Below, in pieces: positions 14,367 to 42,648 of a DNA stretch of 64,000 bases (the first letter of the stretch is position 1; every line of letters begins with the position of its first letter). The notes beneath the pieces were generated by a model. That model had not been told where the DNA came from. It ran no database searches and saw only the letters and a list, made by a program, of their open reading frames with translations. This DNA comes from Thraustochytrium sp. TN22 (lineage: Eukaryota; Sar; Bigyra; Thraustochytrida; Thraustochytriidae), in contig JABLUY010000026.1 of the NCBI GenBank assembly GCA_013306675.1, positions 124,001 to 188,000 of the forward strand. The letters run 5' to 3'. Both the position numbers and the translations under genes were made by a program.

Positions 14367-15635
14367 ATGAAGAAATGCGCCTCTGCGTTGGAGCCCTTCG
14401 GGGACCAGGTCACCTTCGCCGAGCCGGCGTGGTACCAAGGGTCGCCGAGCCCGTACTACAATCAGTCGCACGTGGAGTTTCGCAAGAAGGTGCGCGACTT
14501 CGTGGAGGCGGAGATCATCCCGTTCGTGGACGAGTGGATTGATGAGGGCAAGCTGTACCCGTTGGAGCTGCACAAGAAGGCGTACGATGCTGGGCTCTCG
14601 GGCGTGCTGTACCCGGTCGAGTACGGCGGCACGCCGGTAGAGGGCTTCGACGCCTTCCACGAGCTCATCATGATCCAGGAGATGGCGCGGCCCGGCGGCG
14701 GCGGCGTCCTGGGCCAGCTTGGCATCAACTCGATGGCCCTGCCGCCCATCCTCAAGTTTGGCTCGGACTACATCAAGGACAAGGTGTGCCGCGACGTCAT
14801 CACGGGCAAGAAGAACATCTCGCTCATGATCTCCGAGCCGTGGGCTGGCTCCGACGTGGCCAACATCCGGGCCACGGCGCGCCGCGAGGGCGACTACTAC
14901 ATTGTGGACGCGGAGAAGAAGTGGATCACGGGCTCCCTCATCGCGGACTACTGGACCTGCCTCGTGCGCACGGGCGGCGAGGGCGCGGGCGGGCTCTCGT
15001 GCCTGCTGATTGAGAAGGACATGCCGGGCATCAAGATCCGCAAGATGAAGACCATGTTCGACAACACGCACAACACGTGCCAGGTGACGCTGGATGAGGT
15101 CAAGGTGCCGGTGGAGAACCTGATCGGCGAGGAGGGCAAGGGCTTCGAGTACCTGACGGTGAACTTCAACCACGAGCGGTTCATCATCGCGGCCGGCACC
15201 ACGGCGAGCGCGCGTCTGTGCTACCAGGAGGCCTTCCACGAGGCCATGACGCGGCGCACCTTTGGCCAGAACCTGATCGACTCGCAGATCATCCGCTTCA
15301 AGCTGGCGGAGATGGGCCGCCAGATCGAGGCGCTGCAGGACCACCTGGAGCGCATCGCCTACGCGTTCGCGCAGGGCGTGCCGGACTCGGAGCTCGGCCC
15401 GCAGTGCGCGCTGCTCAAGGTGCAGTCGACGAAGACCTTTGAGTACTGTGCGCGCGAGGCCGTGCAGATCTTTGGCGGCAGCGGCCTGGTCCGCGAGGGC
15501 CGCGGCAAGAAGGTGGAGCGCCTGTACCGCGAGGTTCGCGGTGCCGCCATTCCCGGTGGCAGCGAGGAGATTTTGGAGGACTTTGCCATCCGGCGTGCGG
15601 TGGCAGCGGCCAAGAAAGCGAAGGCGAACCTCTGA
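14367..15635 (+). CDS. Acyl-CoA dehydrogenase, copy 3 of tandem triplet
   Basis: The 422-residue product starts at ATG 14367 (MKKCASALEP). FAD/acyl-CoA motifs are as in copies 1 and 2, with the presumed base Glu in NHERFIIA and AIPGGSEEIL at the end. Its last four residues are KANL, identical to the known peroxisome-targeting end of animal catalase. A peroxisomal acyl-CoA dehydrogenase is therefore likely, although peroxisomes more often use oxidases for this step. The block 14847..15086 is identical at the DNA level to 10981..11220 in copy 1. Substrate-facing differences are concentrated around residues 75-125 and the GTTASA segment before the third helical domain. Confidence 0.9.
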   Translation: MKKCASALEPFGDQVTFAEPAWYQGSPSPYYNQSHVEFRKKVRDFVEAEIIPFVDEWIDEGKLYPLELHKKAYDAGLSGVLYPVEYGGTPVEGFDAFHELIMIQEMARPGGGGVLGQLGINSMALPPILKFGSDYIKDKVCRDVITGKKNISLMISEPWAGSDVANIRATARREGDYYIVDAEKKWITGSLIADYWTCLVRTGGEGAGGLSCLLIEKDMPGIKIRKMKTMFDNTHNTCQVTLDEVKVPVENLIGEEGKGFEYLTVNFNHERFIIAAGTTASARLCYQEAFHEAMTRRTFGQNLIDSQIIRFKLAEMGRQIEALQDHLERIAYAFAQGVPDSELGPQCALLKVQSTKTFEYCAREAVQIFGGSGLVREGRGKKVERLYREVRGAAIPGGSEEILEDFAIRRAVAAAKKAKANL

Positions 15636-25471: not shown

Positions 25472-26635
25472 CTTGCCTTTTGCGGGTCGCTCGCGAGGAC
25501 CTCGCCGCCCGTCTCCGCCGCGCCGCTCGCCGCTCCACCCGGACGCGCGCGACCCAATCGGCTCTGCCCTTCTGCGCGAGCGCCGCTGCTCCTGGAGTTG
25601 CTCGTCCCGCGCCGACGCCGTCGCCGCGCCTCTGACAGGCTTGGGCCTGAGCTGCCGGCCACCGATTTTTTCCGCTCCGAGTGAGCTGGCCCAGTGCCAG
25701 CCTCAGCCCAGCGCCCACACTCTAGCCAGCTCGTGGCGAGCCTGAGCACAGTCAGGTATCGCCGCAGCGCACCGCTGTCAGCCGCGAGGAGATTGGGTCG
25801 TGGCTGGGCGCAGCTTCGGCTGAGGTGAGTGCTCGCAAGATTGCTTATTGATCACGGGTTGGTGGTCGACATGAGCATCGCCGCATGAGCATCGCCGCAT
25901 GTGAGCATCGCCGCATAAGCATCGCCGCAGCGGGCGCGGCTGACGGCGATGTGACGTTGCTTGAGCCGGGAACTCATGACGTGGCTTGTCCAAGACTTGT
26001 CGGTAATCAAGCTTGTCTGATCGGCCTGAGGTGGAGCATCTGAGTTCTGTGGAGGATGTCAGGCCGGAAGGTCGATGCGGCCAAGGTAGTTGGACAGCCA
26101 GAGAGATTGTGCTGCCAGAGCAAGGATCGCAACGGGTAAGATGAGTCTACTACCACAAGCGCACAGTCCGCAGCTGCTATGTCGAAGGTTGGTGGAGAAC
26201 GGCGGACACCACTGCAAGAGAGCTGGGAAGGAGTGCGAGCTGCATCCAGGCTGCTGAGCACCATGCGACCAAGATCCCACTATGCAGACTCAGGGCTCCT
26301 CCTCGCTCCGGGCTGCGCTGCGCAAGTCTATTGTATCCGGATGCATGGCCCCCCTCGCATCACAGCAAGCCAGGCCCTAAGTCTGCATCCGTACGCATTG
26401 GAAAGACCAGTTCGCTCTTGGACGCGGCGCGTCTCGGGCGTTGGTTGCCCCGCGGTGCCGACGCGAGCTCCAGCTCTAGCCGACAGCGAGCAGCGCGCGC
26501 CGCTGCTCTTCTCCAGCGCCGACTGGACCCCCTCCAAGTCGTCCTGGCCTCGCCACAGCAAACCTTGAACAGTTCAAACGGGCGCGGGCGGCGCGCGGGC
26601 GGCAGGCGCGTGGGCGACGGGCGTGCGGGCGTGCG

Positions 26636-26679
<44 letters not shown>

Positions 26680-27084
26680 TTGCGGCGGCGCTTGCGGCGG
26701 CAGCTGCAGCGGCGGCAGCTGCAGCGGCGGCGCTTGCGGCGGCGCTCGCGGTGCTTGCGGCGGCGGCAGCGGCGGCGGCAGCTGCAGCAGTAGCAGCAGC
26801 GCCGCTAGCAGGAGGGCCAGGGCGTCGCGCCGAGCCGACGGACGGATAGCTCGGCGAGGGCGAGGCGTGGCCGCTTCTTCGAGCGCGTCTATTCTCGTCT
26901 CGTCTCGGCGCGCTCGTGCTCGCGTCGAGCGCATCTCTCCTCGTCTCGTCTCGGCGCGCCCGCGCTCGCGCTCGCGCTCGCGTCGAGCGCGTCTCTCCTC
27001 GTCTCCGCGCTAACGCGCTTCGCACGCCACGCGAAGCATAGGCGCGCTGTGAGCTGCTGTTGTTCAGGCCTGGCGCCCAGGAGG
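25472..27084. other. 1.6 kb intergenic region rich in repeats
   Basis: It holds four or five copies of a GAGCATCGCCGCAT-like unit (25872..25930), an AT-richer island without clear coding sense (about 26030..26400), GCG/GCA trinucleotide runs (26636..26800) and two copies of a CTCGTCTCGTCTCGGCGCG-containing unit (about 26894..27000). It presumably holds the promoters of the flanking divergent genes. Confidence 0.6.
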
Positions 27085-29820
27085 ATGGCGGCCACGACGG
27101 TGGATGTGGCAAAGAGCCGCGAGTCGGCGCTTGGCGAGGAGGTGGTGGCCCTCTTCGACAAGCGGTGCGGGCAGCTAATGCAACGCATCCTAGAAGAGCG
27201 GCAGGCGCTGGCGCACGCGACAACGGACGAGAGCGTGATTGAGATCGAGGCGCGCACCGGCGTGCGGGAGAAGGACGGCTTCACACCGGGCGTGAAGAAG
27301 AACTTCTTCCGCAGCATGCTGGACTACTTTTTGAAGAAGGAGAAGAGCGGCACGTGGATGTGCGCGGATGACCGCAGCAAGCGCGTGGGGTTCGCGCACA
27401 CGGATCACGTGGACGTGCAGTTCCAGGATGATGTGCGCGTGACGGTGCGCGTGGACCGCGGCGCGAACGAGCGTGTGGAGAATATTGAGGTGATCGAGGT
27501 CATCACAAAGCGCAAGCTAGGGCGGCCGGCAGACTTTATTGTCAAGGCGCCGCAGCATGGCGACCGTATCCACCTGCGCATCGGCGTCGCCGTGGAGGAG
27601 AGCCTCGGCAAGTCGTCCAAGTCGTTCACGTCACACGTGCGCGCAGCCAAGCGTGCCATCATGGATGCCTTCAATGTATCGACGCGTATCAAGCTGCTTG
27701 GCGGCATCGAGCTGACGCTGCGCAAGGGAGCGAGCCCGGTGGCGCTGGTGTTCCCGCCAGACGGCGAGCAGCTGGCTCGCGGTCCTATGGGCTTTTCCGA
27801 CCCGCTCTACAGCATGGCATCGCAGAATGGGGACCACTTGGATGCGCGCGTCGCCGGCCAGCTCAAGTGGACGTTGCTTCAACCGAGCAACCTGCCTGGC
27901 TGCAAGGGCCGCCCGGACGTGGCGCTGCGCGACAAGACCACGCTGGACCCAAAGATCTTCGTCACCAACTTGCCCGGGCCGATCGACCTGGGCAATGGCG
28001 CCACCTACGCCACCTACGCGTGCCAGTACGTGATCCGCGTGCCGCTGAGCGACGTGCTGTGCGGGCACGGCAAGTTCGCCAAGGGCGCGGCCGAGGAACC
28101 TGGCGCAGACGACGACCAGGGGCCGGATCTGCCCATCAAGGTCTTTCGCCGCAAGAAGCGCTGGTCCTTCGAGCTGCGCAAGAATCAGCACCTAGACATG
28201 ACCGAGTCGCAGCAGTCTGCCAACCTTGGCTCGCTCTATACAGAGCCGCCAATTTTCGAGGTCGAGGTGGAGCGCACGCTCTCTTCGACGGGCTGCCGCG
28301 AACGCTCTCTCGCCGAGCTGGCGCTCGACCTCAATGCCGTCGCACTCGCCGACGCCTTCTTAATGGATATCGCGAGCCGAATTTATGGCGTGGCGCTGCC
28401 GCCCATCAGCCTGGATGCCGCCCCGCCCACCTGGCGGGAGCAAATGGACAAGGACAAACGCCGCGTGCAGCGCTTCAAGCAGGACCTCGTGCAGGCTGAC
28501 GAGTCCGCGCAGGGCGCCGCTTCGGCCTACAAGGACGCAATGCAGCTGGACGCTCCCGAGCTCGCCGACCAGAAGGACGCGGCCGGCTTCTACAACAAGC
28601 TCAACCGGTCCTCCGAGGCCAAGCGCTACGACAGCCTCATCTACCACATGCGCTGCCTGAACAACTTCGTGAAAAACGTCGTGATCAAGGAAGCGCTCGC
28701 ACGCTCGCTAGAGGCCACCATGCGCGAGCCGGGCTCCGGCGTGCACATTCTCGATCTCGCGTGTGGCAAGGGTGCCGACATGCGCAAGATCATGACCGCC
28801 GCCAAGCAGCTCAAGGTGCGCATTGACCAGTACATTGGGGTGGACATCGCGCGCAAGTCACTCGAGGACGCCGTCGCGCGCCTCGACGGCATGTCGCCCA
28901 AGCAGCGCCCCACCTTTCGCGTGCGCTTCATTGAGGCCGACCTCGGGCAGCACCACTTCTCTGCCATCCCGGACAGCGAGGAGGACTTCAAGCTGCTCGA
29001 CCAATGGGACGACCAGGCACAGACTTGGACCAAGCAGCCCCCGAGCAAAACCATCCCGCTCGACCAGACCTTCGACCTCGTCTCCATGCAATTCTCCTTG
29101 CATTACATGTTTCAAAACTGGGAGCGCGCACATCACTTCTTCGGCATGCTCGGTCGCCACATGCGCACGGGTAGCGTCTTCATTGCCACCACGGTCTACG
29201 CCGACGAAATGGTGCGCAAGCTCATGCAGGAGGGGCCCGGCGCCGCCGGCTTCAACATCAGCGACAACGGTGTCGATATTTGTCGCGTCAAATTCGATCC
29301 GGGCTTCCTCAGCCAGTTCCACGCCAACGACCCCGCTGCCGACGCCGACGGCCCCGACGCCGACGGCGCCGGCGACGGAGGCGACGTGGACGACCCTATG
29401 ATGGGTATTCGCTACACCTTTACGCTCTTGGACGGCGACACCGAGTCCGAGCAGGCCGTCGACGCGCCGGAGTGGCTCGTCCCCCAAGCGCTGCTCGTCA
29501 AGGTGGCCACGGCGCACAACTTCAACCTCGTGCGCTACGAGCGCCTTCCCAACTGCGCCTCGCGCCACATCAACCACGACGGCAACCGCCCCGACGCGCT
29601 CTACCGCAGCATGAACGTGCTCAACCATCGTGGCACCATATCGGAGACCGAGTGGAATATCGCGTCGCTCTACGTCGTCGTGGAGCTGCAGAAGGAGGCC
29701 CGCCCTTCGGGCATTAGCGAGGCTCTGGGCCGACTCAAGGAGCGCATCGCAAACTACAAGAACCTCCCTTCTGCCGAGCGCCAGGTCCTCCTCGACACCA
29801 TGATGAGGGAAGACGCCTAG
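27085..29820 (+). CDS. mRNA capping fusion: Cet1-like RNA triphosphatase + cap N7-methyltransferase
   Basis: The product is 911 residues from the ATG at 27085 (the frame opens at a GTG, 27049). The N-terminal half has the tunnel-fold triphosphatase pattern of yeast Cet1 and many protists: IEIEARTG (metal-binding Glu53 and Glu55) and FEVEVERTL (Glu392, Glu394, Glu396), with Arg/Lys strands between (ITKRKLG, IHLRIGVAVEE). The C-terminal half is an mRNA (guanine-N7) methyltransferase: ILDLACGKGADMRK (SAM loop, Asp557), YIGVDIARKSLEDA, FDLVSMQFSLHYMFQN. It would remove the gamma-phosphate from the 5' end of nascent RNA and later methylate the cap; the guanylyl transfer step is missing and is supplied by the gene at 33023. 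The fusion order is unusual. Confidence 0.87.
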   Translation: MAATTVDVAKSRESALGEEVVALFDKRCGQLMQRILEERQALAHATTDESVIEIEARTGVREKDGFTPGVKKNFFRSMLDYFLKKEKSGTWMCADDRSKRVGFAHTDHVDVQFQDDVRVTVRVDRGANERVENIEVIEVITKRKLGRPADFIVKAPQHGDRIHLRIGVAVEESLGKSSKSFTSHVRAAKRAIMDAFNVSTRIKLLGGIELTLRKGASPVALVFPPDGEQLARGPMGFSDPLYSMASQNGDHLDARVAGQLKWTLLQPSNLPGCKGRPDVALRDKTTLDPKIFVTNLPGPIDLGNGATYATYACQYVIRVPLSDVLCGHGKFAKGAAEEPGADDDQGPDLPIKVFRRKKRWSFELRKNQHLDMTESQQSANLGSLYTEPPIFEVEVERTLSSTGCRERSLAELALDLNAVALADAFLMDIASRIYGVALPPISLDAAPPTWREQMDKDKRRVQRFKQDLVQADESAQGAASAYKDAMQLDAPELADQKDAAGFYNKLNRSSEAKRYDSLIYHMRCLNNFVKNVVIKEALARSLEATMREPGSGVHILDLACGKGADMRKIMTAAKQLKVRIDQYIGVDIARKSLEDAVARLDGMSPKQRPTFRVRFIEADLGQHHFSAIPDSEEDFKLLDQWDDQAQTWTKQPPSKTIPLDQTFDLVSMQFSLHYMFQNWERAHHFFGMLGRHMRTGSVFIATTVYADEMVRKLMQEGPGAAGFNISDNGVDICRVKFDPGFLSQFHANDPAADADGPDADGAGDGGDVDDPMMGIRYTFTLLDGDTESEQAVDAPEWLVPQALLVKVATAHNFNLVRYERLPNCASRHINHDGNRPDALYRSMNVLNHRGTISETEWNIASLYVVVELQKEARPSGISEALGRLKERIANYKNLPSAERQVLLDTMMREDA

Positions 29821-30078
29821 TTGCGCGGCATCATCCACGATGGAGAGATGACCTTTTGGTTTTCCGAAACGGGGCGCTGCAAGCTCTTTCGGAGCTGCCT
29901 GTGAGCTCTCTAGAGCTAGCCCGGCGCTCCAGACGAAACCGTGACGCAAACGACAACGTTCAAGAGCCGCCGTGGTGCTTGGAGCGCCGCGGCGGGCTGT
30001 CGCCACCTTCCATCATCCTTTGTTTGTTCGTTCATACCTTACTTGTAGTCAGTACCAGTCAAATCCGTAAGTCAAAAG

Positions 30079-32571
30079 TTAGGCAACAACCGCAAAGGAT
30101 AGCGAGGCATGGTCCAGCGCGAGTGTCCCGGTGGGAGTGCCATCGATGCGCAGCTCCTCGAGCGCGACTGGGAGCCAGCGGATTTTCGCGAGCTCCTGGC
30201 GTGGCAAGCGCTCCGCGCCGCGCACGAATAGCTTGCGCATGCTCATATGGCGGCGCATGGAGAAGAGCGTGACGAGGCGCGAACACCAGGAGAGATCCAC
30301 AATCTCGAGGTTGGCGCAGTCACCCAAAGCGCGCACGTCCATCAAGCTGACGCAGTCGTTCATGTACACCTCGCGCAGGCGTGTACAGGGGCGCAGCGCC
30401 TCGGCATTGCGCAGCTGTACGCAGCGCTTAAGGTCCAGCACCAGCAGCGAGCGCGCGCAGGCCGCCAGGCCGCTCAGGTCTGACAAGTGCACGACGCTGC
30501 GGATGGAGAGACGCCGCAGCTCACAACCTTGCGAGAAGGCCGGCACGACCGTCAAACTGCGGTTCGCCGACAGGTCCAGTGTGCGGCAACGGCGTGCGCG
30601 CCCCACAGGTCGCAGGTCGCTCAGCTGTAGGCAGCCCGTGATCGACAGTGAGCGCAGCGTGCGGAAGCACGGCGAGCTGATGGAAGCCAGCGCGCTGCAG
30701 CCTGTGAGCACGAGCGAGCGAAGCCCGCAGCCGCCGGCGTGGCGTGTCCAGTCCAGATTTGACACCGCCTTGCATTCCACGAGCACGAGGCTGCGCAGCC
30801 CACGGAAATTGGCGAGCCGCGGCGGGCGCTCCAGGTGCTCAGCCTGCCGGATGGCCAGCGAGCGGAGAGCCCCGGCGGGCGCCAGCGCCTCAAGCACCGC
30901 AAGGCTGCGCCCGCGGTACTGCATCAGCTCCAAGTCCGCCAGCTCGCGCAGCATGGGGAAATCCTCCATGCAGGCGTCCTGGCGGTCCGGCTCGTCGTGC
31001 GCGCAGTAGGCCGGCTGAAAGGCGAGTGACAGCCGCCGCAGCGCCGGCATACGCGCCAGTAGTCCCGCGGAGAACGGTTCCCCGACCGCAATGGCCAGCT
31101 CACGCAGGTGCACGAAGCTCCGTGACATGTCGCTCAGCGAATTGTGCGTCCAGCGCACGCCCTCCATGCCAAGCCGGAGACAGGCGCCCGTGCCCATGCC
31201 GGCTGGCAGCGTGTCGATGCTCCAGGCACCCACTGGCACGCTAATATGCACAGACTCGAGCCTGCTCACGGAGCGCAGGTCGAGGAGAACGTGCTCTTTG
31301 CTAATCTTCTGCCGCAGCTGTTGCTCCGGCGCCTTGACATTGCCCCCAGCCCCCGGCCCGTCCTTGTCCAAAGACACGGCACGCGGCGGCGGCTTGAGTC
31401 TGCGGAAGCTGACGCGCAGCTCGCGCAAGCCCGCTGGCCATGTCTGCTTCGACAGCAGCTCCCGCGGGTGGCCCTCGACAGCCCAAAAGTCGAGGACGAG
31501 CCGCTGCAGCGCCGTGCAGCCGCGCAGAAAGGCTGCAAAGGACCGCAGCGCAGACGGCGTCACCAGCTCACACTGGTCCACCGTGAGCGTGCGCAGCGAC
31601 TCGGGCGCCGCGGTGACGGCCACGGCGCCGAAACTGGACACTTTGAGCTGCGTCAGCGTGACGGCCTCCAGGTGCGGCAGCTCGCCAAGGAAGCGCAGGT
31701 CCACGGCCGACGCGCTTCCAGCCAGCTGCAGGCGCCGCAGGCGCCGCAGCAAGGCGAGCGCGGCCGCGCCCTCGGCCCACTCGTCGGCGAGCGCCAGGCG
31801 CAGATTTTCCAGGGGGAAAGCCACCTCGCGCAGGCCGTCCAGCGCCGCCCGCGTGCAGCCCGACACCTCCAAGGTGCGCAGCGCGGGTAGGTGGTGCAGG
31901 CCGCTCAGCTTGCGCAAGCGGTCGCCGCTGCGACAGGCCACGACGACGCGTGAAAGCGCCGGCGCCGGCTGCGTCCAGCCAAGGTCTGCCGTGTCCAGGT
32001 CCACACGCAGGTTCGTGAGCCGCAGGGCGCGGAGGCGTGCCAGCAGTGCGGCATGGTCCTCGCAGAGTCGGCGCCACTGCGAGAGGCGCGCGTGGTCGAG
32101 GCGCAGGTCAGTGAGCCCCGGGAAGCGCGCCAAGAGCGCCCGCAGCGCAGGGGGCGGCGCCAGCTGCGCGAATCGCAGCTCGAGCTGCTCCACGCGCGGT
32201 TCAGGCGCGTCCTCCGCCCACTCCGGCATGCGCGCCAGCGAGAGACGGCCCACGCTGCGCGGGATGCTCGACACGGACCCATCCGCGTGCTGCTGCTCCA
32301 CGGCCACGTACTCGAGCCCGCTCACCACGCGTCCGCGCAGGCCCAGGTTCGCACCGAGCCCCACGCGGGTCTGCCATGCCTCGCCGCCGCGCGCCGCCCA
32401 GCATCTCGCGCGCGCGCGCTCCTCTTGCGCCGCGGTCAGCCAGACCTCGGCGGGCTCTGCCGAGAGCGCGTGCCGCAGCCCCTTGGACGCCGCCCGCAGC
32501 GCCGCCACGCCGTCCAGCCCTGCGAACGGCGCCACGGCCGCCGCCACGTCCTCCAGCCCGCGCCGCCCCAT
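30079..32571 (-). CDS. Leucine-rich repeat protein, possible F-box
   Basis: The product is 830 residues from the ATG at 32571. From about residue 130 to the end it is built of leucine-rich repeats of about 22-28 residues, many of the Cys-containing type seen in F-box/LRR proteins (for example LRSLSITGCLQLSDL, LLVLDLKRCVQLRNAEAL, LREVYMNDCVSLMDVRAL, LEIVDLSWCSRLVTLF). The N-terminus (LEDVAAAVAPFAGLDGVAALRAASKGLRHAL...VW) has the spacing of a degenerate F-box. If so, it would be a substrate receptor of an SCF ubiquitin ligase. It lies between the two capping genes, converging with the first; no functional link is evident. Confidence 0.75.
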   Translation of the reverse strand: MGRRGLEDVAAAVAPFAGLDGVAALRAASKGLRHALSAEPAEVWLTAAQEERARARCWAARGGEAWQTRVGLGANLGLRGRVVSGLEYVAVEQQHADGSVSSIPRSVGRLSLARMPEWAEDAPEPRVEQLELRFAQLAPPPALRALLARFPGLTDLRLDHARLSQWRRLCEDHAALLARLRALRLTNLRVDLDTADLGWTQPAPALSRVVVACRSGDRLRKLSGLHHLPALRTLEVSGCTRAALDGLREVAFPLENLRLALADEWAEGAAALALLRRLRRLQLAGSASAVDLRFLGELPHLEAVTLTQLKVSSFGAVAVTAAPESLRTLTVDQCELVTPSALRSFAAFLRGCTALQRLVLDFWAVEGHPRELLSKQTWPAGLRELRVSFRRLKPPPRAVSLDKDGPGAGGNVKAPEQQLRQKISKEHVLLDLRSVSRLESVHISVPVGAWSIDTLPAGMGTGACLRLGMEGVRWTHNSLSDMSRSFVHLRELAIAVGEPFSAGLLARMPALRRLSLAFQPAYCAHDEPDRQDACMEDFPMLRELADLELMQYRGRSLAVLEALAPAGALRSLAIRQAEHLERPPRLANFRGLRSLVLVECKAVSNLDWTRHAGGCGLRSLVLTGCSALASISSPCFRTLRSLSITGCLQLSDLRPVGRARRCRTLDLSANRSLTVVPAFSQGCELRRLSIRSVVHLSDLSGLAACARSLLVLDLKRCVQLRNAEALRPCTRLREVYMNDCVSLMDVRALGDCANLEIVDLSWCSRLVTLFSMRRHMSMRKLFVRGAERLPRQELAKIRWLPVALEELRIDGTPTGTLALDHASLSFAVVA

Positions 32572-33022
32572 GCCCCCGCGTCTCGCCCTGCTCGCGCGCC
32601 GCGCAGCGCTCGCTGCCTTGCGGGTCTGTTCGCGCGCTCGCCGACGCCGACCTCGGCGCCGAGGCGCGCCTCGACGAGGCGGAGCTCATGGTCACTGTCA
32701 AGTCCACGAGCTACTTTTTCTGCAAGAACGAATGAGGGGATGGATCGCACCTGCAGCGCTCCCCACGCAAGTTGCCGCTCGCTCTCTGCGCTGTGCTGGG
32801 CTGTGCTGGGCTGTGCTGCGCTGCGCTGCGCGCTCTGCTGCATGCTGCTGCATGCTGCTACGGCAAGGTTGTTAGCGCGAGGAGGATCTCTCATCAGACA
32901 AGGTCTGGCCTGGTCAGGCTGTCGTGTTTGCAGAGGATTGTAGTGGCTTTAGCTACTTGCTCTTCTCTGCCGCTCTCCCAGAGCCGCTCACTCTCGCGCT
33001 ACGCGTTGACCTAGGCCTAGGC
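32572..33022. other. Intergenic with CTGTG/CTGCG repeats and CCTAGG palindrome
   Basis: No gene is visible. GCTGTGCTGG-type pentanucleotide repeats lie at 32795..32850. A palindromic run CCTAGGCCTAGGCCTA (33010..33025) overlaps the stop codon of the minus-strand capping gene; the identical 16-mer recurs at 42152..42167. Confidence 0.6.
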
Positions 33023-36000
33023 CTACTTGGCGGCGGCGGGGGCAGCGCGCTTGAATACCATGACCTTGTACAGCTGGATAGCCTCCCACTCGGCCTGCGA
33101 AAGCGGCGCGCGGCCGTTGGTCTTGCGGCCGATGACGGCCATGGAGTGGAGCATGGCCTCGTAGTCTTTGCTCTTGTCGGCAATGAAGGCAGATAGGTTC
33201 TGCGACATGGTCAATTGCAGGCCATGCTCCGCGGCGATGGCGCACACACGCGCCTCGGGCACGACAAACTCCTCACAGTCCTGCACGGCGTCGCCAAGCG
33301 AGAAGCTGTAGGCGCTGCCAAAGGCAAGGTCGTCCGCCTGGGCCGGCAGCTCCTGCGCAAAGGAGACCGCGCAAACCGGGTTGCGAAAAGCAGGCCGACG
33401 CGCGTGCAGAACGTCAGCATCCGTGGTGGACATGATGAGCACGGGCTCGAAGCCGTCCGGCGCCGCGCCGGTGTCCTGCAGCGTGGCGTCCACGATGCGG
33501 AAGAAACGGCGGCACCGGTCTTCGTCGCTGCACAGGTAGTGGAATGCGAACTGGACGCTGACCACGTCGAAGCGCGAGCCGCGCACGGCCTCGTGCTCGA
33601 GAAGGGCCAAATCCGACATGTCGGCCTCCACGAAGGTGTAGCGCGTGTCGTCCTGGGCGCGCGAGCGCGCCTCCTCGAGCGCCACACTCGCAATGTCGAC
33701 GCCGACAAAGGCGTCGATATGCGCGGCGCTGGCGCGCCACTTGTTGAGGTCGCCGCCGCGCCCGCACGCGAGGTCCAGGACGCGCATGGGCGCCTCGCGC
33801 TTCTCCTGTGCGCGATCCGCCTCGCGCATGGCCTTGAAGGACATGGACGGCCCGCCGCCCCCGCGCCGCGGCGGCAGCAGCTCGGCCGGGATGCGCGGCA
33901 GATCCTGTGCGCTTGTGCGCCGCGCGCCGTCGCCGGCAAGCTTGCCCAGACAGCACTCGTGCACGAGCACGGCCTTGGACCAGTTGTTCAGCTTGCGCAG
34001 GTTCTCGATCCCGGCATCCAGCTCGCCCTTGCCCTTGGCGTTGCGCTCCGCCTGGCGCTCATTGTAGTGCGCAGCGACCGCGCGCGAGCCGCCAGCGCCG
34101 GCGCCGCCGGCAGGCTCCGCGGGCAGGCCCTCGGGGAATTCCGCCACGAGCGCCTCAACGCGCGCTGCGAGCGCATCCACCGAGACGGCCTCGGCCACCG
34201 ACTCTAGCACGCTCCAGCCCGTCCTGAGCGAGTTGGGCCGCGACTTGTCCACGCGCACGCGCAGTGCGCGCCAGCAGCCGAGTGACGCGTCAAAGACGCA
34301 CTCCAAAATGCTGGACGACGGCCCGCGCGCGTTACGCTTGCTCGCGGCGCCCGCGGCTGTCTGCCGAATCTCCTCCGCCACCTCGGCCTCGCCCAGCTCC
34401 ACGTCCGTCATGCCGGAGCGCCCGTTCACGTTCACGTGCTCCGAGAGGAAGATGGGCATGCGCCGGCCGGCGCCGCCGGCGCCGCCGTGGGAGAGGTCGC
34501 GCGCCATGACGCGAAAGTCCACCGTCAGTTGCTCCACCGGCTTGTACTTGACCACCGTGTACTCATAGTAGGTCTTGAGCGCCGGCGTGAAGACCAAGCC
34601 GTCGCACGCCACACGGCCAATTCCCTCGTACTCGTACTCGCGCGCCGCCTCGCGCAGCTCGCTGACGCGCTCAAGGTCCAAGAACGCCTTGTCGACCAAC
34701 CGGAGCCCACCCAGCTGGTCCACGCTGCCGCGGTATTCGCGCCACGCGTCCATGCGCGCGCGCAGGTCCGGCAGCGCGCCCACGTCCCGCGTACCCACGC
34801 GGATCGCGTCGAAGACAAGGTAGCCGCGGTCCGCGACGACTTCACCGTCCAGCAGGAGCCACTCCTGCTGGCCTTGGTCGGGCTGCTGCGCCTCCGCGCT
34901 GTCGGCAGGACCCAGGGTGCCGACGTAGCGAAAGGCCCAAGACCGCTCCACCAAGAAGCACTCGCGGCCCGGACCTGGAAAGCCCAGCAGCATGTGGCGT
35001 ACACCGTCAGACTTCTCGCAGACGACCCAAGCGCGGTGCTCGCGGCCGAGCGCCATGAGCTTGCTCAGGCGGAACGGCTCGGCGCGCGGGCCGGGGATGT
35101 CGCGATGCTTCATGTAGAACGCCACGTCTCTGTCCGGGCAGTTGCGCTGCATGATCTCACTCGACGTGAAGATGGTGGCCAGGCGGTCGCGCAGGTACGC
35201 GGACTGAATCGTGTCCAGAGACGAGGGCCGCTCCTGCGCGCCGCGCTGCGCCTGCGCCGCATACGCATCGAGAGCGCGACAGAGGTCACCGGCGGGGTTC
35301 AGGGCGCCGCCGCCTCCGTCCGCGGTCACGTCGGCGTCTGGCAGCAGCACGCAGGTGGCCACCGGGTTGCGCTCGAACTTTTCTGCGTGATTGTCCAGCA
35401 GCAGCGTGTTGCCCGCGTCGAAGCGGTCGCCAAAGGTCTCCCAGACCTTGTTCACGTCCTTGAGGAAGAGCGGCTTCTGCTGCGACACGACCGAGGTGCG
35501 TGGCCACTCGTTCGTGGAGTCCTCCTGGTCCCACTGAAAGAGCACGCGGTCGTCGTCGTACGGCGCGAAGAGCTCCATCTCCATACGCTCGCGCTTGCCG
35601 CAGGACCACACGCCCACGTGGAAGCGCTCCATACAAAAATGGATGAACTCGTCGCAGTGCGGCCGCCGCACGAAGCTGCTGTTGCTGCCGCCGCCGCGCC
35701 CGCCGCCGCGCCCGCGCCGGTCCTTGAAGCTCGGTCGGTCCACCAGCACGCCGTTCAGGTCCAGGATAATGAGCGGCGCATCGGCGCGCGGCTGCCGCGC
35801 GAGCTCCCAGCGCAGCTGCAAGAGTCCGGAGGGCAGCGTGCGCACCACGCGCACCACGTCCAGCGACTGCAGCGCGCCGGCGCCCTGCCAGAGCTCCACG
35901 CCGCTCACCACGCCGTAGACCTGCGGCTGCACTTCGACCAGCGTGCCGCCCGGGCCCACTTCGACCACCTTGCATCGTCGGAACTCTGCGCCGTCCTCCA

Positions 36001-36073
36001 CGGCCGCGTGGTCCGGGAATTGCCGCTGCTCAAACGGCACGAAGCCGCCGCCCTGCTGCTGCATGTGCTGCAT
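33023..36073 (-). CDS. mRNA capping fusion: FCP1-like HAD + guanylyltransferase + cap N7-methyltransferase
   Basis: From the first in-frame ATG (36073) the product is 1016 residues. The frame stays open to a GTG at 36550, and the RGG/Gly-rich stretch before 36073 looks translated, so the true start may be spliced in (an ATG at 36369 opens MDDWRRRDGG in another frame). Domains: FCP1-type HAD (IILDLNGVLVD, Asp105; LLLDN later; RP...FIHF...VWSCGKR); mRNA guanylyltransferase with all main motifs (nucleophile Lys354 in KSDGVR, LLLDGEVV, YLVFDAI, ACDGLVFTP, VVKYKP, RVRVDKSRPN); and N7-methyltransferase (VLDLACGRGGDLNKW, AFVGVDIA, FDVVSVQFAFHYL). It would add and methylate the GMP cap. The HAD motif is D-x-N rather than D-x-D. 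Confidence 0.87.
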   Translation of the reverse strand: MQHMQQQGGGFVPFEQRQFPDHAAVEDGAEFRRCKVVEVGPGGTLVEVQPQVYGVVSGVELWQGAGALQSLDVVRVVRTLPSGLLQLRWELARQPRADAPLIILDLNGVLVDRPSFKDRRGRGGGRGGGSNSSFVRRPHCDEFIHFCMERFHVGVWSCGKRERMEMELFAPYDDDRVLFQWDQEDSTNEWPRTSVVSQQKPLFLKDVNKVWETFGDRFDAGNTLLLDNHAEKFERNPVATCVLLPDADVTADGGGGALNPAGDLCRALDAYAAQAQRGAQERPSSLDTIQSAYLRDRLATIFTSSEIMQRNCPDRDVAFYMKHRDIPGPRAEPFRLSKLMALGREHRAWVVCEKSDGVRHMLLGFPGPGRECFLVERSWAFRYVGTLGPADSAEAQQPDQGQQEWLLLDGEVVADRGYLVFDAIRVGTRDVGALPDLRARMDAWREYRGSVDQLGGLRLVDKAFLDLERVSELREAAREYEYEGIGRVACDGLVFTPALKTYYEYTVVKYKPVEQLTVDFRVMARDLSHGGAGGAGRRMPIFLSEHVNVNGRSGMTDVELGEAEVAEEIRQTAAGAASKRNARGPSSSILECVFDASLGCWRALRVRVDKSRPNSLRTGWSVLESVAEAVSVDALAARVEALVAEFPEGLPAEPAGGAGAGGSRAVAAHYNERQAERNAKGKGELDAGIENLRKLNNWSKAVLVHECCLGKLAGDGARRTSAQDLPRIPAELLPPRRGGGGPSMSFKAMREADRAQEKREAPMRVLDLACGRGGDLNKWRASAAHIDAFVGVDIASVALEEARSRAQDDTRYTFVEADMSDLALLEHEAVRGSRFDVVSVQFAFHYLCSDEDRCRRFFRIVDATLQDTGAAPDGFEPVLIMSTTDADVLHARRPAFRNPVCAVSFAQELPAQADDLAFGSAYSFSLGDAVQDCEEFVVPEARVCAIAAEHGLQLTMSQNLSAFIADKSKDYEAMLHSMAVIGRKTNGRAPLSQAEWEAIQLYKVMVFKRAAPAAAK

Positions 36074-36397
36074 GTGCTGCTGCTGCTGCTGGAGGCCGCC
36101 AGGGCCCGGCGGCGGCGCCTGACGATCTGCGAAGCGGGCGGACCCGCCGCCCGCTGTCTGCCAGCCGCCGCCGTCGCCGTTGCTGTTGTGGCTGTTGCGC
36201 CCAAAGTTCCTCGCGCTCGCACCGCCGCCGCCGCCGCCACCGCCGCCGCCGCGCGGGAAGGCGCGCGAGGAGCCGCGCGCGGCGCGCCGCCGCCGCGCGG
36301 CCCAGGTCTGCCGCCGCGGCCGCCGCCGCCGCCGCCGCCGCCGCCATCGCGCCGCCGCCAGTCGTCCATGCCGGCGCCGCACGCGCCGCTCTGCCGC

Positions 36398-36431
<34 letters not shown>

Positions 36432-37117
36432 GCCGCTCGAGCGTCGAGCGATTGCTGATTGATTGATCGATCGGTCGATGATCGATCGACGATTGACTCC
36501 AACTCCGCCGCCGCCGCTGCTTTGCCGCACTTGCGCGCGCGGGCGCCCACTTACGCGCGCCAAAGACCCCCTTGCGCGCGCCAAAGGGCCCCTTGCGGCG
36601 CTGCCCATTCTCTACTTGCGCGCGACGGGCGCGAGGAGGACGAGGAGGACGGCGCGGAGACCGGGAGCCTGCGCGGCATCATGGTCGAGGGCGGCGAGCT
36701 TGACGGGCGAGGCTCGGAGCCCACGGGGACGTCGAGGATGCGGAGCTCGCAGGGCTGATCTGAGGGGGCTTCGCGGGGAGCTGAGCTCCTTGTGAGGAAA
36801 TCTCGCCGTCGGGGTGCACATGGGCAATGGGTTTGCTGCAGGTGCGACGGGGAGCGTCGGTGGGATGCGAGGGAGCCTCGGCGGCATCAGGAGCGTCGGT
36901 GGCCTTGCAAGGCAGATAAAAAGTCGCTCGGCACGCCGACGCGGAACGGGCGCAAGGAGCTGAGCAGGTTGCAGGATGGTGTCACGTGTGGAGATTGATG
37001 TCACGTGGAGCTTGGTGTCACGGGAGCTCGTCGGCGAGTCAAAGCTCGCCAGTCAATAGACAGTGTTTTTTTGCAATTGGGCTTACAATGTGCGAGTCGC
37101 GCGGGTATTACGTTCTA
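36074..37117. other. 5' region of capping gene and intergenic DNA
   Basis: 36074..36370 probably encodes the Gly/Arg-rich N-terminus of the capping protein. CCG trinucleotide runs lie at 36223..36251 and 36405..36432, and short GATCGAT-type repeats at 36463..36492. 36500..37117 shows no gene. Confidence 0.5.
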
Positions 37118-39925
37118 TCATCTGGAGCGACGGGCAACGTGCAAGGAGGAACGGCGGCGGTCGCGCCGCACAAAGAGCTGCCAGAGGACGCGTTGCGAGG
37201 TGGTGTCCGTGTCGCAAAAGACAGGGTCCAGCTTGCAGAGGGCGCGCTTGCGGTACCTGAGCTCGAGTTCAGCAGGCGGCGCGTAGATTGCGAGGACGGC
37301 GCCCTCGCGCAGGGTGCGCACATCGAGGTTCTCGCAGGCTGCAGCGGAGGCCAGAACTAGGTCGGCATCGGCCCAGAGCACGAGCTGCTTGGATGGCGCA
37401 CGCAAGGTGAACTCCGTGATAATCTGCGAGGCGCCCGCTGCGGCGGTCGCGCCCTCCGATTCGTCATCTCCGATCGCGTCGTCGTCCTCGAAGCTTGGCA
37501 CGAAGAGGTTCTCCATGTCTGCCTCAAAGCGCGCGACAGCCTCAGCTGCAACCTGGCGCAGACCTACATCGTGCTCCAGGCCGATGGCGGCGCGGAAGGA
37601 GCGAGCTAAGCAGGCTGCCATGAGCGCGTGGCCAGCGCCGGCCTCGAGGTCGCATAGTTTCTTGCCGCGAAAGTCGAAGCGGTGCAAGAGCTGCAACGAG
37701 CTGAGTAGGAGCTCAACGTGCAAGAAGTCCGTGCAGAGGTCGCCCTCGCGCACGGCTTGTGCGCCGAAACGCGCTTCGCGAAAGGCCTGCTGGTCCGCGA
37801 GCACGCGGTGCATGCGGCGTACGCGTGCCCCCCCGACGGTGCCGAGCGACTCCCAGGCGGCGACGGGCAGGAGTGGGAGCAGGCGCCGCACGACGGCGAC
37901 CTGATCACTCGCCGCGGCCGCGTAGAGCGCCTTTTGCAGTGTGGGCGCATCTGCAAAGCCCACTGTGGCCTGCACCGCCGCAAGGGCTCCGCGCTTGGCG
38001 GCCAACACGAAGGCCTCGCGCTTCCAGGCCACGGGCGTGGTGGTTGGCAGCAGCCTGCACACCAGGGCAAGGACGTCCTCTCGATCGCGAGAGGCTGCCA
38101 GCAACATGGCCTGGCGCTGCACAGCGTGCGGGGCGAGGCCCAGCAAGTAGGCAACCACACGCTTGTCGGGGCGCGCTAGACTCACCGCGAGGAGCACGCC
38201 TCGAATGATGTGCTTCTCCGTGCAGGCCGGCACAGCGCGGCGCACCATGGTCAGGTCCACGGCGCGAATGGCCGCACAAAGCGTGTCGAGCGTGCGATTG
38301 GATTCCTCCTGCGGGTCTTTTGTCGCCTCTGCAGCCGCATTAGCCGCCGCCGCTGCTGCAGCCGCTGTACCCGTTATCGCCTTTGACGGTACCGGTTCTG
38401 CTTGTGGGTTCCAGCCGCGAGCCTCGAGCTCTGCGTAGCCTGTCGTAAAGGCGCACCCGCGTAGCAGGCAATAGTCGGCCAAAAGCCGGGCGTGGGTGAA
38501 GGGCGTGTAGCGCTGGGTGTTCTCTTCGAGCTTCTCCGCAGAGATCTCCATGAAGGCGTCCAGGAAATCGACAATCTCGGTCCGGGCAATGGCCTCCACT
38601 GGGTCCATCTCGACGCGCTCGTAGGTGCGCGTGCGGAGCATGTCCAAGAAGAGCGGACGCATAATCTGCTGTGTAAACTTTTCACGACTCGGCCGCCAGT
38701 CGGCGCCCGAAATGGCACGGTACTGCGTCGCCGCGCACTCGAGCATGATGACCTGCGTCAGGACCTCGTCGAGCTGTTCGCGCTGTGCGGCGTCGCGTGC
38801 CGCCTCAACCGCGTCCTCCGCGTCATTCAGCGACCTTGCGCCGTGCTCGTCCTCGTAAAGCTCGCCCTCCTCCTCCTCCTCGTTCTCCTCCGCGTCGCTC
38901 ACGTCTTGTTCCTCGTCGTTCTCGGCGTCCGCGCCGCCCTCTTCCGGCGTGGTGATGGCTTGACTCTCGCCGGCGGCTTGCTCGCCGGCCGCCGAGGCGC
39001 CCTCCTCGGGGCTGTCGTCATCGACGTCCGCGGCGTCAAAGGCGCGGAAGTACGACTCGTGCGTGGCGGCGCTTGTGAGCAGCTCGGCCAGCTCGGCGCG
39101 CGTAAATTCTGAGAAGGGATAGTGCATCGCCGCGGCCTTGGCCGGCTGCCGCGGGGCCGCTTCCTCTGCCTTCCATGCAGGGCAAACGGGTGCGCCGGGG
39201 TCGCCCACCGAACAGCGCCGCCTTGGTCCGGGTGGTGGCGGCCGGTAGGCCACGGTGAAGCGTCTGGCGCGGTCCGCGTTGCTGCAATGGCGCTCGCGTG
39301 CCGTGGCCATGAGCGAGCCGCCGCGCCGACGCCGCCATGCGAGCTCCGCGTCGCGCAGCGTGGCAGCCTCTGTCCCAGAGTCCGAGACCACGTAGGCGTC
39401 TGGGCGCGCGTCCGAGAGCAGGTTGCGCATCTGCGTCTGACTCGGGAAGTTCACGGTGCTCACGCTGGCCTGCACGGACTCGCGTCGCCGCTGCCCGCGC
39501 ACAGGAAGTCGCTTTGGCCTCTGCTGGCCATCGTCCTGCTCCTGCTCCTGCTCCCGCGTCTCTGCGTCCTCGTCGCGCGGCGCTGCCTCCGCGTCTGCCG
39601 GCAGCTCCAGCAGCTTGTGTGCCGCCAGCTGCGTCTTGAGCGCGAGCGTCTGCACCTGCAGCTGGGCTTTGGTCAGCGCAGTGCTGGCCGGCGCCGGCAA
39701 GGCGGGTAGCGCCGGCAGCGCCGATGCCGCCGTGCCCATGCCTCGCGGCGCAGCGCGCTGCGCGCCGCCGCGAAAGTCTGCTTCTGAGCCTGGCGAACCA
39801 GCGGCTCGCAGCGGCTCACCAGGCCGCTGGTTCGCTTTTGAGGTCACCGTTCCGAACTCTTCGAGGTCGCCAGTGACCGTGTGCACCTTTGCATCATGAT
39901 CATCATGATGCCCGGCCCGGGCCAT
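37118..39925 (-). CDS. Ankyrin-like repeat protein with DOT1-like methyltransferase tail
   Basis: The product is 935 residues from the ATG at 39925. The N-terminal third is basic and low-complexity, followed by an acidic stretch (Glu/Asp-rich, about 290-365). At about 375-480 lies a helical region of unknown type. About 530-690 has 33-residue helical repeats of ankyrin type (VVAYLLGLAPHAVQRQAMLL, REAFVLAAKRGALAAVQATV, LQKALYAAAASDQVAVVRRLL). The last about 200 residues resemble a class I SAM methyltransferase, closest in pattern to DOT1: LCDLEAGAGHALMAACLA, then AAIGLEHDVGLRQVA, then ADLVLASAAACENLDVRTL and GAVLAIYAP. The Gly-rich loop has Glu in place of the first Gly, so activity is uncertain. 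Confidence 0.65.
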   Translation of the reverse strand: MARAGHHDDHDAKVHTVTGDLEEFGTVTSKANQRPGEPLRAAGSPGSEADFRGGAQRAAPRGMGTAASALPALPALPAPASTALTKAQLQVQTLALKTQLAAHKLLELPADAEAAPRDEDAETREQEQEQDDGQQRPKRLPVRGQRRRESVQASVSTVNFPSQTQMRNLLSDARPDAYVVSDSGTEAATLRDAELAWRRRRGGSLMATARERHCSNADRARRFTVAYRPPPPGPRRRCSVGDPGAPVCPAWKAEEAAPRQPAKAAAMHYPFSEFTRAELAELLTSAATHESYFRAFDAADVDDDSPEEGASAAGEQAAGESQAITTPEEGGADAENDEEQDVSDAEENEEEEEGELYEDEHGARSLNDAEDAVEAARDAAQREQLDEVLTQVIMLECAATQYRAISGADWRPSREKFTQQIMRPLFLDMLRTRTYERVEMDPVEAIARTEIVDFLDAFMEISAEKLEENTQRYTPFTHARLLADYCLLRGCAFTTGYAELEARGWNPQAEPVPSKAITGTAAAAAAAANAAAEATKDPQEESNRTLDTLCAAIRAVDLTMVRRAVPACTEKHIIRGVLLAVSLARPDKRVVAYLLGLAPHAVQRQAMLLAASRDREDVLALVCRLLPTTTPVAWKREAFVLAAKRGALAAVQATVGFADAPTLQKALYAAAASDQVAVVRRLLPLLPVAAWESLGTVGGARVRRMHRVLADQQAFREARFGAQAVREGDLCTDFLHVELLLSSLQLLHRFDFRGKKLCDLEAGAGHALMAACLARSFRAAIGLEHDVGLRQVAAEAVARFEADMENLFVPSFEDDDAIGDDESEGATAAAGASQIITEFTLRAPSKQLVLWADADLVLASAAACENLDVRTLREGAVLAIYAPPAELELRYRKRALCKLDPVFCDTDTTSQRVLWQLFVRRDRRRSSLHVARRSR

Positions 39926-40338
39926 GTGATCGTGTCATCACGCGTCATCACAGGGAAACTTGAAGCTGCGCGCGCTGGCCTGCGCGCTGGACTGCGCTGG
40001 GTTGCTGGGTGGAGTACGGCGCAGCCTGAGGCATGGGGCACGGATGAAGGATGAGGGCCTGGAGCAGGCACCCGCGTGTAGGTAGGTAGAAATCCGTTCG
40101 AAACCCAGATGGCTACATCATTCGAGCCGCAGGCACTGTCAGCATGCACGAGCAAGCAGATCCGCAGATCCGCATTGCGCGAGGCGGGCTCGCACAAGGT
40201 CTATTGGACGGGTGGAGGCCGGTCAATGAGGATGACCAGGTCGTCGAACCCACGGTCGAGATGAGACCCGCCGGAAGCTTGTTGTGAGAGCTCGTTCGCG
40301 CACCTGATCGTGCACTCACGAAGTAGGTTACTTGGATC
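39926..40338. other. Intergenic, nothing recognised
   Basis: A CATGATCATCATGATG-type palindromic run lies at 39893..39909, over the start of the minus-strand gene. The rest of the stretch has no gene or repeat that I can see. Confidence 0.5.
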
Positions 40339-41343: not shown

Positions 41344-42648
41344 CGAAGCAAAGGTAAAGAGTGAGCGAAGCGCAGTGCGCCTCGATGTGAGAGGAGGAGG
41401 CCAGCGAGCTTGAGCACGATTGTCCAGCTTAGCTAGAGCTAGCTAGCTAGCTAGCTAGCTGGCTACTTGGGGAGCTTCGTTGCGCGGTATCAGTTCCCGC
41501 CCGTGCTGCTCTATGCACCAACACGTGCGCGACGCGCGATGCGCTCTTGTAGTGCCGCCCTGTCCAGCGCAGTGCTTGTGGGCCACGTAGCAAGGCGCCA
41601 GCCACCTTGAATGCCGGCCGGGTGCGATCGCGTGGAGCAGATCTGGATTTCACATTTTGCCGCCGCGCGGTGAATTTTTGTGCGCATGGGCTCTGCTGCC
41701 AACAGCACAAGAACACGCCATCCTTGCGCGCCAGAGCTGCGCCAGACGACGTGCTGCGCTGCACGGTACGACACGACGGCCACTGCGCGCGCAGCACCAC
41801 GGATGATGTACACGCTGCCCGTCCGAGTCCAAACAACACAACATCACCGCCTTTACGTTCTTCGTCAGCCGGGACGCGCTCGCCGACGCGCGCCGACTTG
41901 CGGTGGCGGAGGCGCCGAAAATAACGGACGGTGACGTCAGCTGCCCGCCCGCCACTCTTGACTCCAGTGCCTCGGTCGCTTACAACACGGCCTGCGAGCG
42001 CCCGCCCTGCTGACTGGCAAAGACTCGCCGAAATCCACTTGAAGCCGCGCGCCCCGTCCATCCATCCATCCATTCATTCCAAGCAAGCGCATGCACCGGT
42101 TCGTCTCGGCCAATCACGGGCGCCGCCGACGTCGTCGTTCTCACCCGTAGCCCTAGGCCTAGGCCTAAGAGGGCTAGGCCAGGCTAATGTAAGTTGCCAG
42201 TCAGACCGACTCACTCGCAGTGACGGAGAGTCTGACTGACCTCACTCGATACAACCTACTATGCCTAGTACATGAGTCCTCCTCCCGAAGTACGTGCCGT
42301 TGTAGCAGTCCATGTCGTCGAGGAACAAAGCAAGATCAGGGGATCGATCCAAGGACGCCCGCCGACGCGAGGCGCCCCGAGGAGGGCCGGCGAGCGCGGC
42401 GCAGAGCGCCTTCGCGGGCGACGGCGGCCGGCCTGCGCGAAGGAGGAGCGGCGCGCGCGCATCGCGCCGCGGGCAGGGCCCGAGGCGGAGCGCGGAGCAG
42501 GGCGACGAGCAGGGCGACGTTGACGCGGCGGCGGCGGCGCTGGAGGTCGAGTCGCAGCGCGCGAGGCCGCGGCCCAGGCGACAGAAAGCCAAGGTAGATT
42601 GCGGAGCCGGCGACAGGCTTGGGCTGGCCTGGCGCGGCCCCAGGAGCC
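41344..42648. other. Intergenic region with AGCT and CCAT repeats
   Basis: It holds an AGCTAGCT run (41431..41462), a (CCAT)n run (42058..42074) and the palindromic CCTAGG run at 42152..42167. A plus-strand ATG at 42312 opens an Arg-rich frame ending near a GTAGAT donor-like site at 42594; it could be a leader exon of the DUF262 gene, but no acceptor in the right phase was found. Confidence 0.5.

What the first reader, a model, noticed from the sequence alone, without database searches (positions are those of the whole stretch)
27085..36073. Cap synthesis split over two fusion proteins, each with its own N7-methyltransferase
The first protein joins a Cet1-type triphosphatase to a cap methyltransferase. 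The second, 3.2 kb away on the other strand, joins an FCP1-like HAD domain to a guanylyltransferase and a second cap methyltransferase. Together they cover all three capping steps with the last one duplicated. Known arrangements are metazoan triphosphatase-guanylyltransferase, separate fungal enzymes, trypanosome guanylyltransferase-methyltransferase, and viral three-domain enzymes. Two methyltransferases may serve different RNAs or cytosolic re-capping.
Basis: partly seen in the sequence, partly recalled or inferred. Interest (0 to 1): 0.85.

Follow-up and report, generated by a model that had tools for sequence, protein, structure and literature searches.

The report
Two neighbouring fused mRNA-capping enzymes
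A GC-rich protist-like genome carries two neighbouring genes that fuse mRNA cap-making enzymes in unusual combinations, plus a separate ordinary cap enzyme elsewhere, so the cell probably has one standard and one extra cap-making route.

Summary
Window 27085-29820 (+) encodes a triphosphate-tunnel (Cet1-type) RNA triphosphatase fused to a cap N7-methyltransferase (P1). Window 33023-36073 (-) encodes an FCP1/NIF-like HAD domain, a guanylyltransferase and a second N7-methyltransferase (P2). Both are single open frames with coding periodicity throughout. The main catalytic motifs are present, except that the HAD motif I is DxN, not DxD. The triphosphatase match is below Pfam's cut-off.

The interpretation needs revision. 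The genome (37.9 Mb) also has a stand-alone Ceg1-type guanylyltransferase on contig C111. P1 plus C111 is therefore a complete ordinary set, and P2 is an additional GTase-MTase. The two methyltransferases are the only ones found. They lie 3.2 kb apart, and in a six-row tree they fall together, apart from opisthokont enzymes.

The inventory (one triphosphatase, two guanylyltransferases, two methyltransferases) equals that of trypanosomes but is fused differently. A PfaA-type PUFA synthase suggests a thraustochytrid. No listed paper describes these fusions, but no annotated eukaryote protein set could be searched. My reading: a canonical line (P1 + C111) and an accessory line (P2), with the HAD domain as a probably non-catalytic dock.

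The parts
27085..29820 (+). P1, 911 aa: TTM (Cet1-type) RNA triphosphatase fused to cap N7-methyltransferase A
   Evidence: single ATG-to-stop frame; coding periodicity throughout
27238..28275 (+). TTM triphosphatase region, aa 52-397, with a long insert around aa 185-345
   Evidence: PF02940 aa 63-177 E 1.7e-4, 21.8 bits vs cut-off 24; 3bgy/2qy2 aa 353-397 E 0.063/0.064; Glu motifs
28576..29694 (+). cap N7-methyltransferase A, aa 498-870
   Evidence: PF03291 146.3 bits; 8q69 cap methyltransferase E 5.6e-17; conserved columns
33023..36073 (-). P2, 1016 aa: N-terminal unassigned stretch, HAD (NIF/FCP1-like), guanylyltransferase, cap N7-methyltransferase B
   Evidence: single frame; coding periodicity throughout
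35774..36073 (-). P2 N-terminal 100 aa, no assigned domain
   Evidence: one Pfam row, below its cut-off; two PDB rows, E 0.61 and 1.4
35360..35773 (-). HAD domain of NIF/FCP1 type, aa 101-238, motif I DLNGV (DxN)
   Evidence: PF03031 38.3 bits, E 1.4e-9; TIGR02245 E 2.7e-4, 20.5 bits, far below its cut-off; UBLCP1 3shq E 0.01; alignment with nine other NIF places
34169..35038 (-). guanylyltransferase, aa 346-635, KSDG at 354-357 and motifs III, IIIa, IV, V, VI
   Evidence: PF01331 and PF03919; eight PDB capping-enzyme rows, E 6e-9 to 0.0043; motif positions
33047..34006 (-). cap N7-methyltransferase B, about aa 690-1009
   Evidence: PF03291 159.8 bits; cap methyltransferase 9mg0 E 1.1e-18; conserved columns

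Best explanation
The organism has two partly overlapping cap-making lines. In the ordinary line P1 removes the gamma-phosphate of nascent RNA with its TTM domain, the stand-alone C111 guanylyltransferase adds GMP, and P1's methyltransferase A methylates the cap, so the first and third steps sit on one polypeptide and the second is supplied in trans. P2 is an accessory enzyme. It shows no triphosphatase or kinase motif, so it must receive 5'-diphosphate RNA (most simply from P1), caps it and methylates it on one polypeptide. Its FCP1-like HAD domain, with Asn in place of the second catalytic Asp, most likely serves as a weak or non-catalytic phospho-site dock, for example on phosphorylated Pol II CTD, that directs P2 to a subset of transcripts. 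Shown: domain content, motif conservation, gene counts. Inferred: activities, order of hand-over, HAD role, RNA subset.
For: Domains and motifs. Gene counts in the own genome: PF03291 2 places, both here; PF01331 2 genes (3 rows); PF03919 the same 2 genes. A search with P1 1-487 found itself and one 47-aa hit at E 0.153. The C111 GTase stands in a 438-aa frame with no other domain above cut-off. Residues named as cap contacts in K. lactis Abd1 (Asn147, Tyr251, Glu344, Tyr413; passages of PMC12276006) have apparent counterparts in both A and B, matched by eye on the alignment. In SCP1 Asp98, the second Asp, helps nucleophilic attack (passage of PMC7281111). P2 has no Walker A and no HCxxxxxR[ST] motif. 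The HAD is closest to the two other DxNG proteins among nine NIF places compared. Codon usage of P1, P2 and the C111 gene resembles a pool of five window genes (cosine 0.984-0.994; the five themselves 0.950-0.992).
Against: No expression, activity or localisation data. PF02940 scores below its cut-off, one Arg of the 3bgy triphosphatase is His in P1, and the genome search with PF02940 was silent even on P1, so a second divergent Cet1 cannot be ruled out. P1 lacks the WAQKW string by which yeast Cet1 binds its guanylyltransferase (motif recalled), so how P1 would meet C111 is unknown. Methyltransferase A has GAD where the other four rows have GGD. The HAD could still be an active phosphatase. 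Whether Pol II here has heptad repeats was not tested. Structure prediction failed (mean pLDDT 35.8 and 33.0).
Confidence: 0.5

Rival explanations
1. P2 is a cytoplasmic re-capping enzyme, analogous in job to trypanosome TbCe1 plus TbCmt1, acting on decapped RNA.
For: Trypanosomes also have two guanylyltransferases and two N7-methyltransferases, one set nuclear and one cytoplasmic (passages of PMC11417388). P2 joins the two activities needed and has no run of four or more basic residues.
Against: TbCe1 carries an RNA kinase activity for 5'-monophosphate ends; P2 has no Walker A motif and has a HAD domain instead.
Confidence: 0.22
2. P2 is the main, physically coupled nuclear enzyme, like TbCgm1, and the C111 GTase is the accessory one.
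For: TbCgm1, the nuclear trypanosome enzyme, has GTase and MTase activities and likely works with a separate triphosphatase. P2 has the same two activities by domain.
Against: The C111 GTase is far closer to PDB capping enzymes 4pz6 and 3rtx (112 and 75 bits; recalled as fungal and mammalian) than P2's is (39 and 34 bits), and P1 already has its own methyltransferase.
Confidence: 0.18
3. P2, or its GTase-MTase part, was acquired from a large DNA virus.
For: Large DNA viruses carry fused capping enzymes (recalled).
Against: Four scans of IMG/VR gave no confirmed relative (0 of 1, 44, 104 and 68 matched stretches), though two to six peptide patterns per scan make this weak. Codon usage is like that of window genes, and neighbours with a Pfam match mostly look cellular. 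The NCLDV capsid search was silent with silent controls and says nothing.
Confidence: 0.08

Closest known systems
Trypanosoma brucei capping set (TbCet1, TbCgm1, TbCe1, TbCmt1)
   Same: TTM triphosphatase; two guanylyltransferases and two N7-methyltransferases, with GTase and MTase together in one protein
   Different: there one MTase is monofunctional and the second GTase has an RNA kinase activity; here the triphosphatase is fused to an MTase, one GTase stands alone, and the GTase-MTase carries a HAD domain
Fungal Cet1 / Ceg1 / Abd1
   Same: TTM triphosphatase, Ceg1-type stand-alone GTase (C111, 112 bits to 4pz6), Abd1/RNMT-type MTase
   Different: separate proteins in fungi; in P1 the first and third activities are one polypeptide, and P2 has no fungal counterpart known to me
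Large DNA virus three-domain capping enzymes (recalled)
   Same: fusion of capping activities; weak TTM similarity to 3bgy/2qy2 (recalled as mimivirus)
   Different: neither P1 nor P2 has all three domains; codon usage is like that of window genes
FCP1/SCP/UBLCP1 phosphatases
   Same: NIF/HAD domain, 38.3 bits; UBLCP1 3shq E 0.01
   Different: motif I is DxN; fused to capping domains

Membership tests
Cet1-like TTM RNA triphosphatase | profile match above the curated cut-off | tested here: not met
   PF02940 21.8 bits vs 24, though E 1.7e-4
Cet1-like TTM RNA triphosphatase | paired Glu motifs on first and last tunnel strands (motif recalled) | tested here: met
   Glu at aa 53/55 and 392/394/396; C-terminal piece aligned with 3bgy/2qy2
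Cet1-like TTM RNA triphosphatase | eight-strand tunnel fold | tested here: inconclusive
   AlphaFold2 without relatives gave pLDDT 35.8
mRNA cap N7-methyltransferase (RNMT/Abd1), A and B | PF03291 above cut-off and cap-contact residues | tested here: met
   146.3 and 159.8 bits vs 26.6; 26 invariant columns in a five-row alignment, cap contacts of Abd1 matched by eye; A has GAD for GGD
mRNA guanylyltransferase (P2 and C111) | KxDG nucleophile and motifs III-VI, both Pfam domains | tested here: met
   Pfam; motifs
FCP1/SCP phosphatase (P2 HAD) | catalytic motif DxDx(T/V) at motif I | tested here: not met
   DLNGV at aa 105-109; two DxDx[TV] strings at 173 and 246 are not at motif I
TbCe1-type re-capping enzyme | RNA kinase activity with the GTase | tested here: not met
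   no Walker A motif in P2, a HAD domain before the GTase; sequence test only
TbCgm1-type nuclear enzyme | GTase-MTase protein that caps nuclear RNA | tested here: inconclusive
   both domains present; localisation and substrate not testable

The most novel reading that the evidence does not exclude
P2 is a dedicated second capping machine in which an FCP1-like pseudophosphatase reads a phosphorylated partner (CTD or other) and thereby chooses which transcripts receive a cap from a self-contained GTase-MTase, beside a general line whose first and third enzymes are fused in P1.
Probability: 0.25. Interest if true: 0.8.

Novelty: new variant of a known kind. Interest (0 to 1): 0.55.

Why it matters
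Capping-enzyme layout has been used as a marker of eukaryote evolution (passages of PMC2904801), with two layouts stressed there: separate enzymes, or triphosphatase-guanylyltransferase fusions. A triphosphatase-methyltransferase fusion and a HAD-guanylyltransferase-methyltransferase fusion in one protist would add two layouts. A second capping set outside trypanosomes would make transcript-specific capping or re-capping testable in another lineage.

Tried and rejected
Structure prediction of P1 1-487 and P2 1-321 without relatives gave unusable models, so no fold search was run. An S1-like reading of P2's first 100 aa, made by eye, found no support in Pfam or PDB and is dropped. Viral origin was searched by four IMG/VR scans without a confirmed relative. 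PF02940 and NCLDV capsid genome searches were silent with silent controls and are not used as absence. NCBIfam and PHROGs scans of P1 and P2 gave only rows for general methyltransferases and the HAD_IIID1 row, the NCBIfam rows all far below their cut-offs. The methyltransferase tree has six rows, some partial, the four comparison rows all opisthokont (organisms partly recalled), so it cannot tell a local duplication from an older one. Literature searches for these fusions gave none in the rows listed: 20 of 22 listed; 20 of 103; 0 found; 15 of 47; 15 of 27; 15 of 19; 3 of 3; 10 of 166.

Failed or unanswered calls (SSU rRNA search, machine busy or no usable answer, then given up); 40 (PUFA synthase search, answered on repeat); 18 (my wrong coordinates, corrected); 80 (this report in a wrong format).
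Full report
What is there. The window lies at C188:124001-188000 of an unnamed 37.9-Mb, 453-contig genome, with GC 0.595-0.701 in 2-kb steps. P1 (27085-29820, +, 911 aa) and P2 (33023-36073, -, 1016 aa) are convergent, with an LRR gene (30079-32571, -) between them. GC by codon position keeps the low-second, high-third pattern through both frames and their linkers; it weakens upstream and is lost downstream, so each is best read as one unbroken coding sequence. Codon usage of P1, P2 and the C111 GTase has cosine 0.984-0.994 to a pool of five Pfam-supported window genes, which score 0.950-0.992 themselves. Of 14 window frames scanned with Pfam, P1 and P2 included, three had no family; most of the rest look like ordinary cellular genes.

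Domains of P1. The methyltransferase is clear (PF03291 146.3 bits, cut-off 26.6). The triphosphatase is weaker: PF02940 19.2 bits in the whole protein and 21.8 bits for aa 1-487, below the curated 24, with E 1.7e-4. A second, collinear piece (aa 353-397) is matched best by 3bgy and 2qy2, named triphosphatase and capping enzyme (recalled as mimivirus), at E 0.063-0.064, ahead of antibody, DotC and ribosomal rows at E 0.41 and above. Glu pairs sit where TTM enzymes have them (aa 53/55 and 392/394/396; motif recalled), with RRKKRW and LDMT stretches before the second. One Arg of 3bgy is His in P1. I take it as a TTM triphosphatase with a long insert; fold prediction could not confirm it.

Domains of P2. 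HAD/NIF aa 101-238, guanylyltransferase aa 346-635, methyltransferase to aa 1009. GTase motifs I (KSDG 354-357), III, IIIa, IV, V and VI are present. The HAD motif I reads DLNGV. Of the ten NIF places of the genome, three carry DxNG (P2, L018, L019), five DxD, one DxE (L015, Tim50-like by my reading), and one, L020, does not cover the motif. By BLAST among nine others P2's HAD is nearest to L018 (67 bits) and L019 (47 bits), then L017 (41 bits; UBLCP1-like by my reading). The second Asp helps catalysis in SCP1 (passage of PMC7281111), and a double mutation including it nearly abolishes TbTim50 phosphatase activity (passages of PMC8546626). A pseudophosphatase is therefore likely but not shown.

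The rest of the capping genes. PF03291: two places, both in the window. PF01331 and PF03919: two genes, P2 and C111. The C111 gene lies in a 438-aa frame, reads as a Ceg1-type enzyme (112 bits to 4pz6, 93 to 1p16, 75 to 3rtx) and has no other domain above cut-off. A protein search with P1 1-487 found no second copy (one 47-aa hit at E 0.153); the PF02940 genome search rang nowhere, not even at P1, and proves nothing. eIF4E has two places; FtsJ has seven, three of them strong. These searches read six frames without introns. So P1 plus C111 make one complete set and P2 adds a second GTase and MTase.

Relationship of the two methyltransferases. They share 26% identity over 333 aligned positions (81 bits). 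Five rows share 26 invariant columns, among which I find by eye the counterparts of the Abd1 cap contacts Tyr251, Glu344 and Tyr413 (passages of PMC12276006); the Asn is kept in the four rows that cover it. P1 has GAD where the others have GGD. In a six-row tree A and B fall on one side and 8q69 (human RNMT, recalled), 9mg0 and 9mg5 (taken as fungal) and Ecm1 on the other (SH-aLRT 97.4, bootstrap 95; LG+G4). The split is unrooted and the outgroup only opisthokont, so it speaks against an opisthokont-like origin of one copy but does not date the duplication. As the only two such genes found in 37.9 Mb, their lying within 9 kb has a chance of about 2 x 9 kb / 37.9 Mb, near 0.0005, if places were random (my arithmetic). 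An old inverted local duplication is the simplest account.

Organism. A PfaA-type PUFA synthase scores 2539.7 bits (cut-off 1010.1) in one 3044-aa frame on C124, with another polyketide-type frame (2083 aa) on the opposite strand beside it. That layout is recalled from thraustochytrids; with the long unbroken genes seen here I infer a thraustochytrid-like stramenopile. Species not determined; the SSU search did not complete.

How it may work. P1 carries steps one and three; C111 supplies step two, by what contact is unknown (no WAQKW string in P1). P2 shows no TTM or cysteine-phosphatase motif and no Walker A motif, so it depends on diphosphate ends from elsewhere. An FCP1-family domain without its second Asp is best explained as a dock. 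The trypanosome system shows that two capping sets in one cell can divide labour between nucleus and cytoplasm (passages of PMC11417388; TbCMT1 and TbCGM1 in passages of PMC6057678). P2 resembles TbCgm1 in joining GTase and MTase, but shows no sign of the kinase of TbCe1.

Novelty. Searches for such fusions or for thraustochytrid capping enzymes found no paper in the rows listed. I saw listings, plus passages of eight papers; none was read whole. The library is open-licence only, and no annotated eukaryote protein set was on hand, so the architectures may already sit unremarked in databases. I call it a new variant of a known kind.

Noticed in passing
window 42619-47166 (+): 1515-aa open frame with an N-terminal GmrSD_N (restriction-endonuclease type) match, 35.3 bits against a cut-off of 33.2, in a eukaryote contig.
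   Followed up: no
window 10498-11781 and 14367-15635 (+): Two acyl-CoA dehydrogenase genes close together, probably a tandem duplicate.
   Followed up: no
L019 (C188:91508-92050) and L018 (C413:122165-122698): Two further NIF/HAD genes with the DxNG motif, so this variant is a small family in the genome and not a private change in P2.
   Followed up: partly
C410 around 25857-39995 (own genome): A 5691-aa open frame with several matches to the PfaA profile, probably a large polyketide-type synthase.
   Followed up: no
window 36074-36550 (-): The frame of P2 stays open for about 160 codons upstream of its ATG but is repetitive in letters and lacks the clear coding GC pattern over most of its length.
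   Followed up: partly
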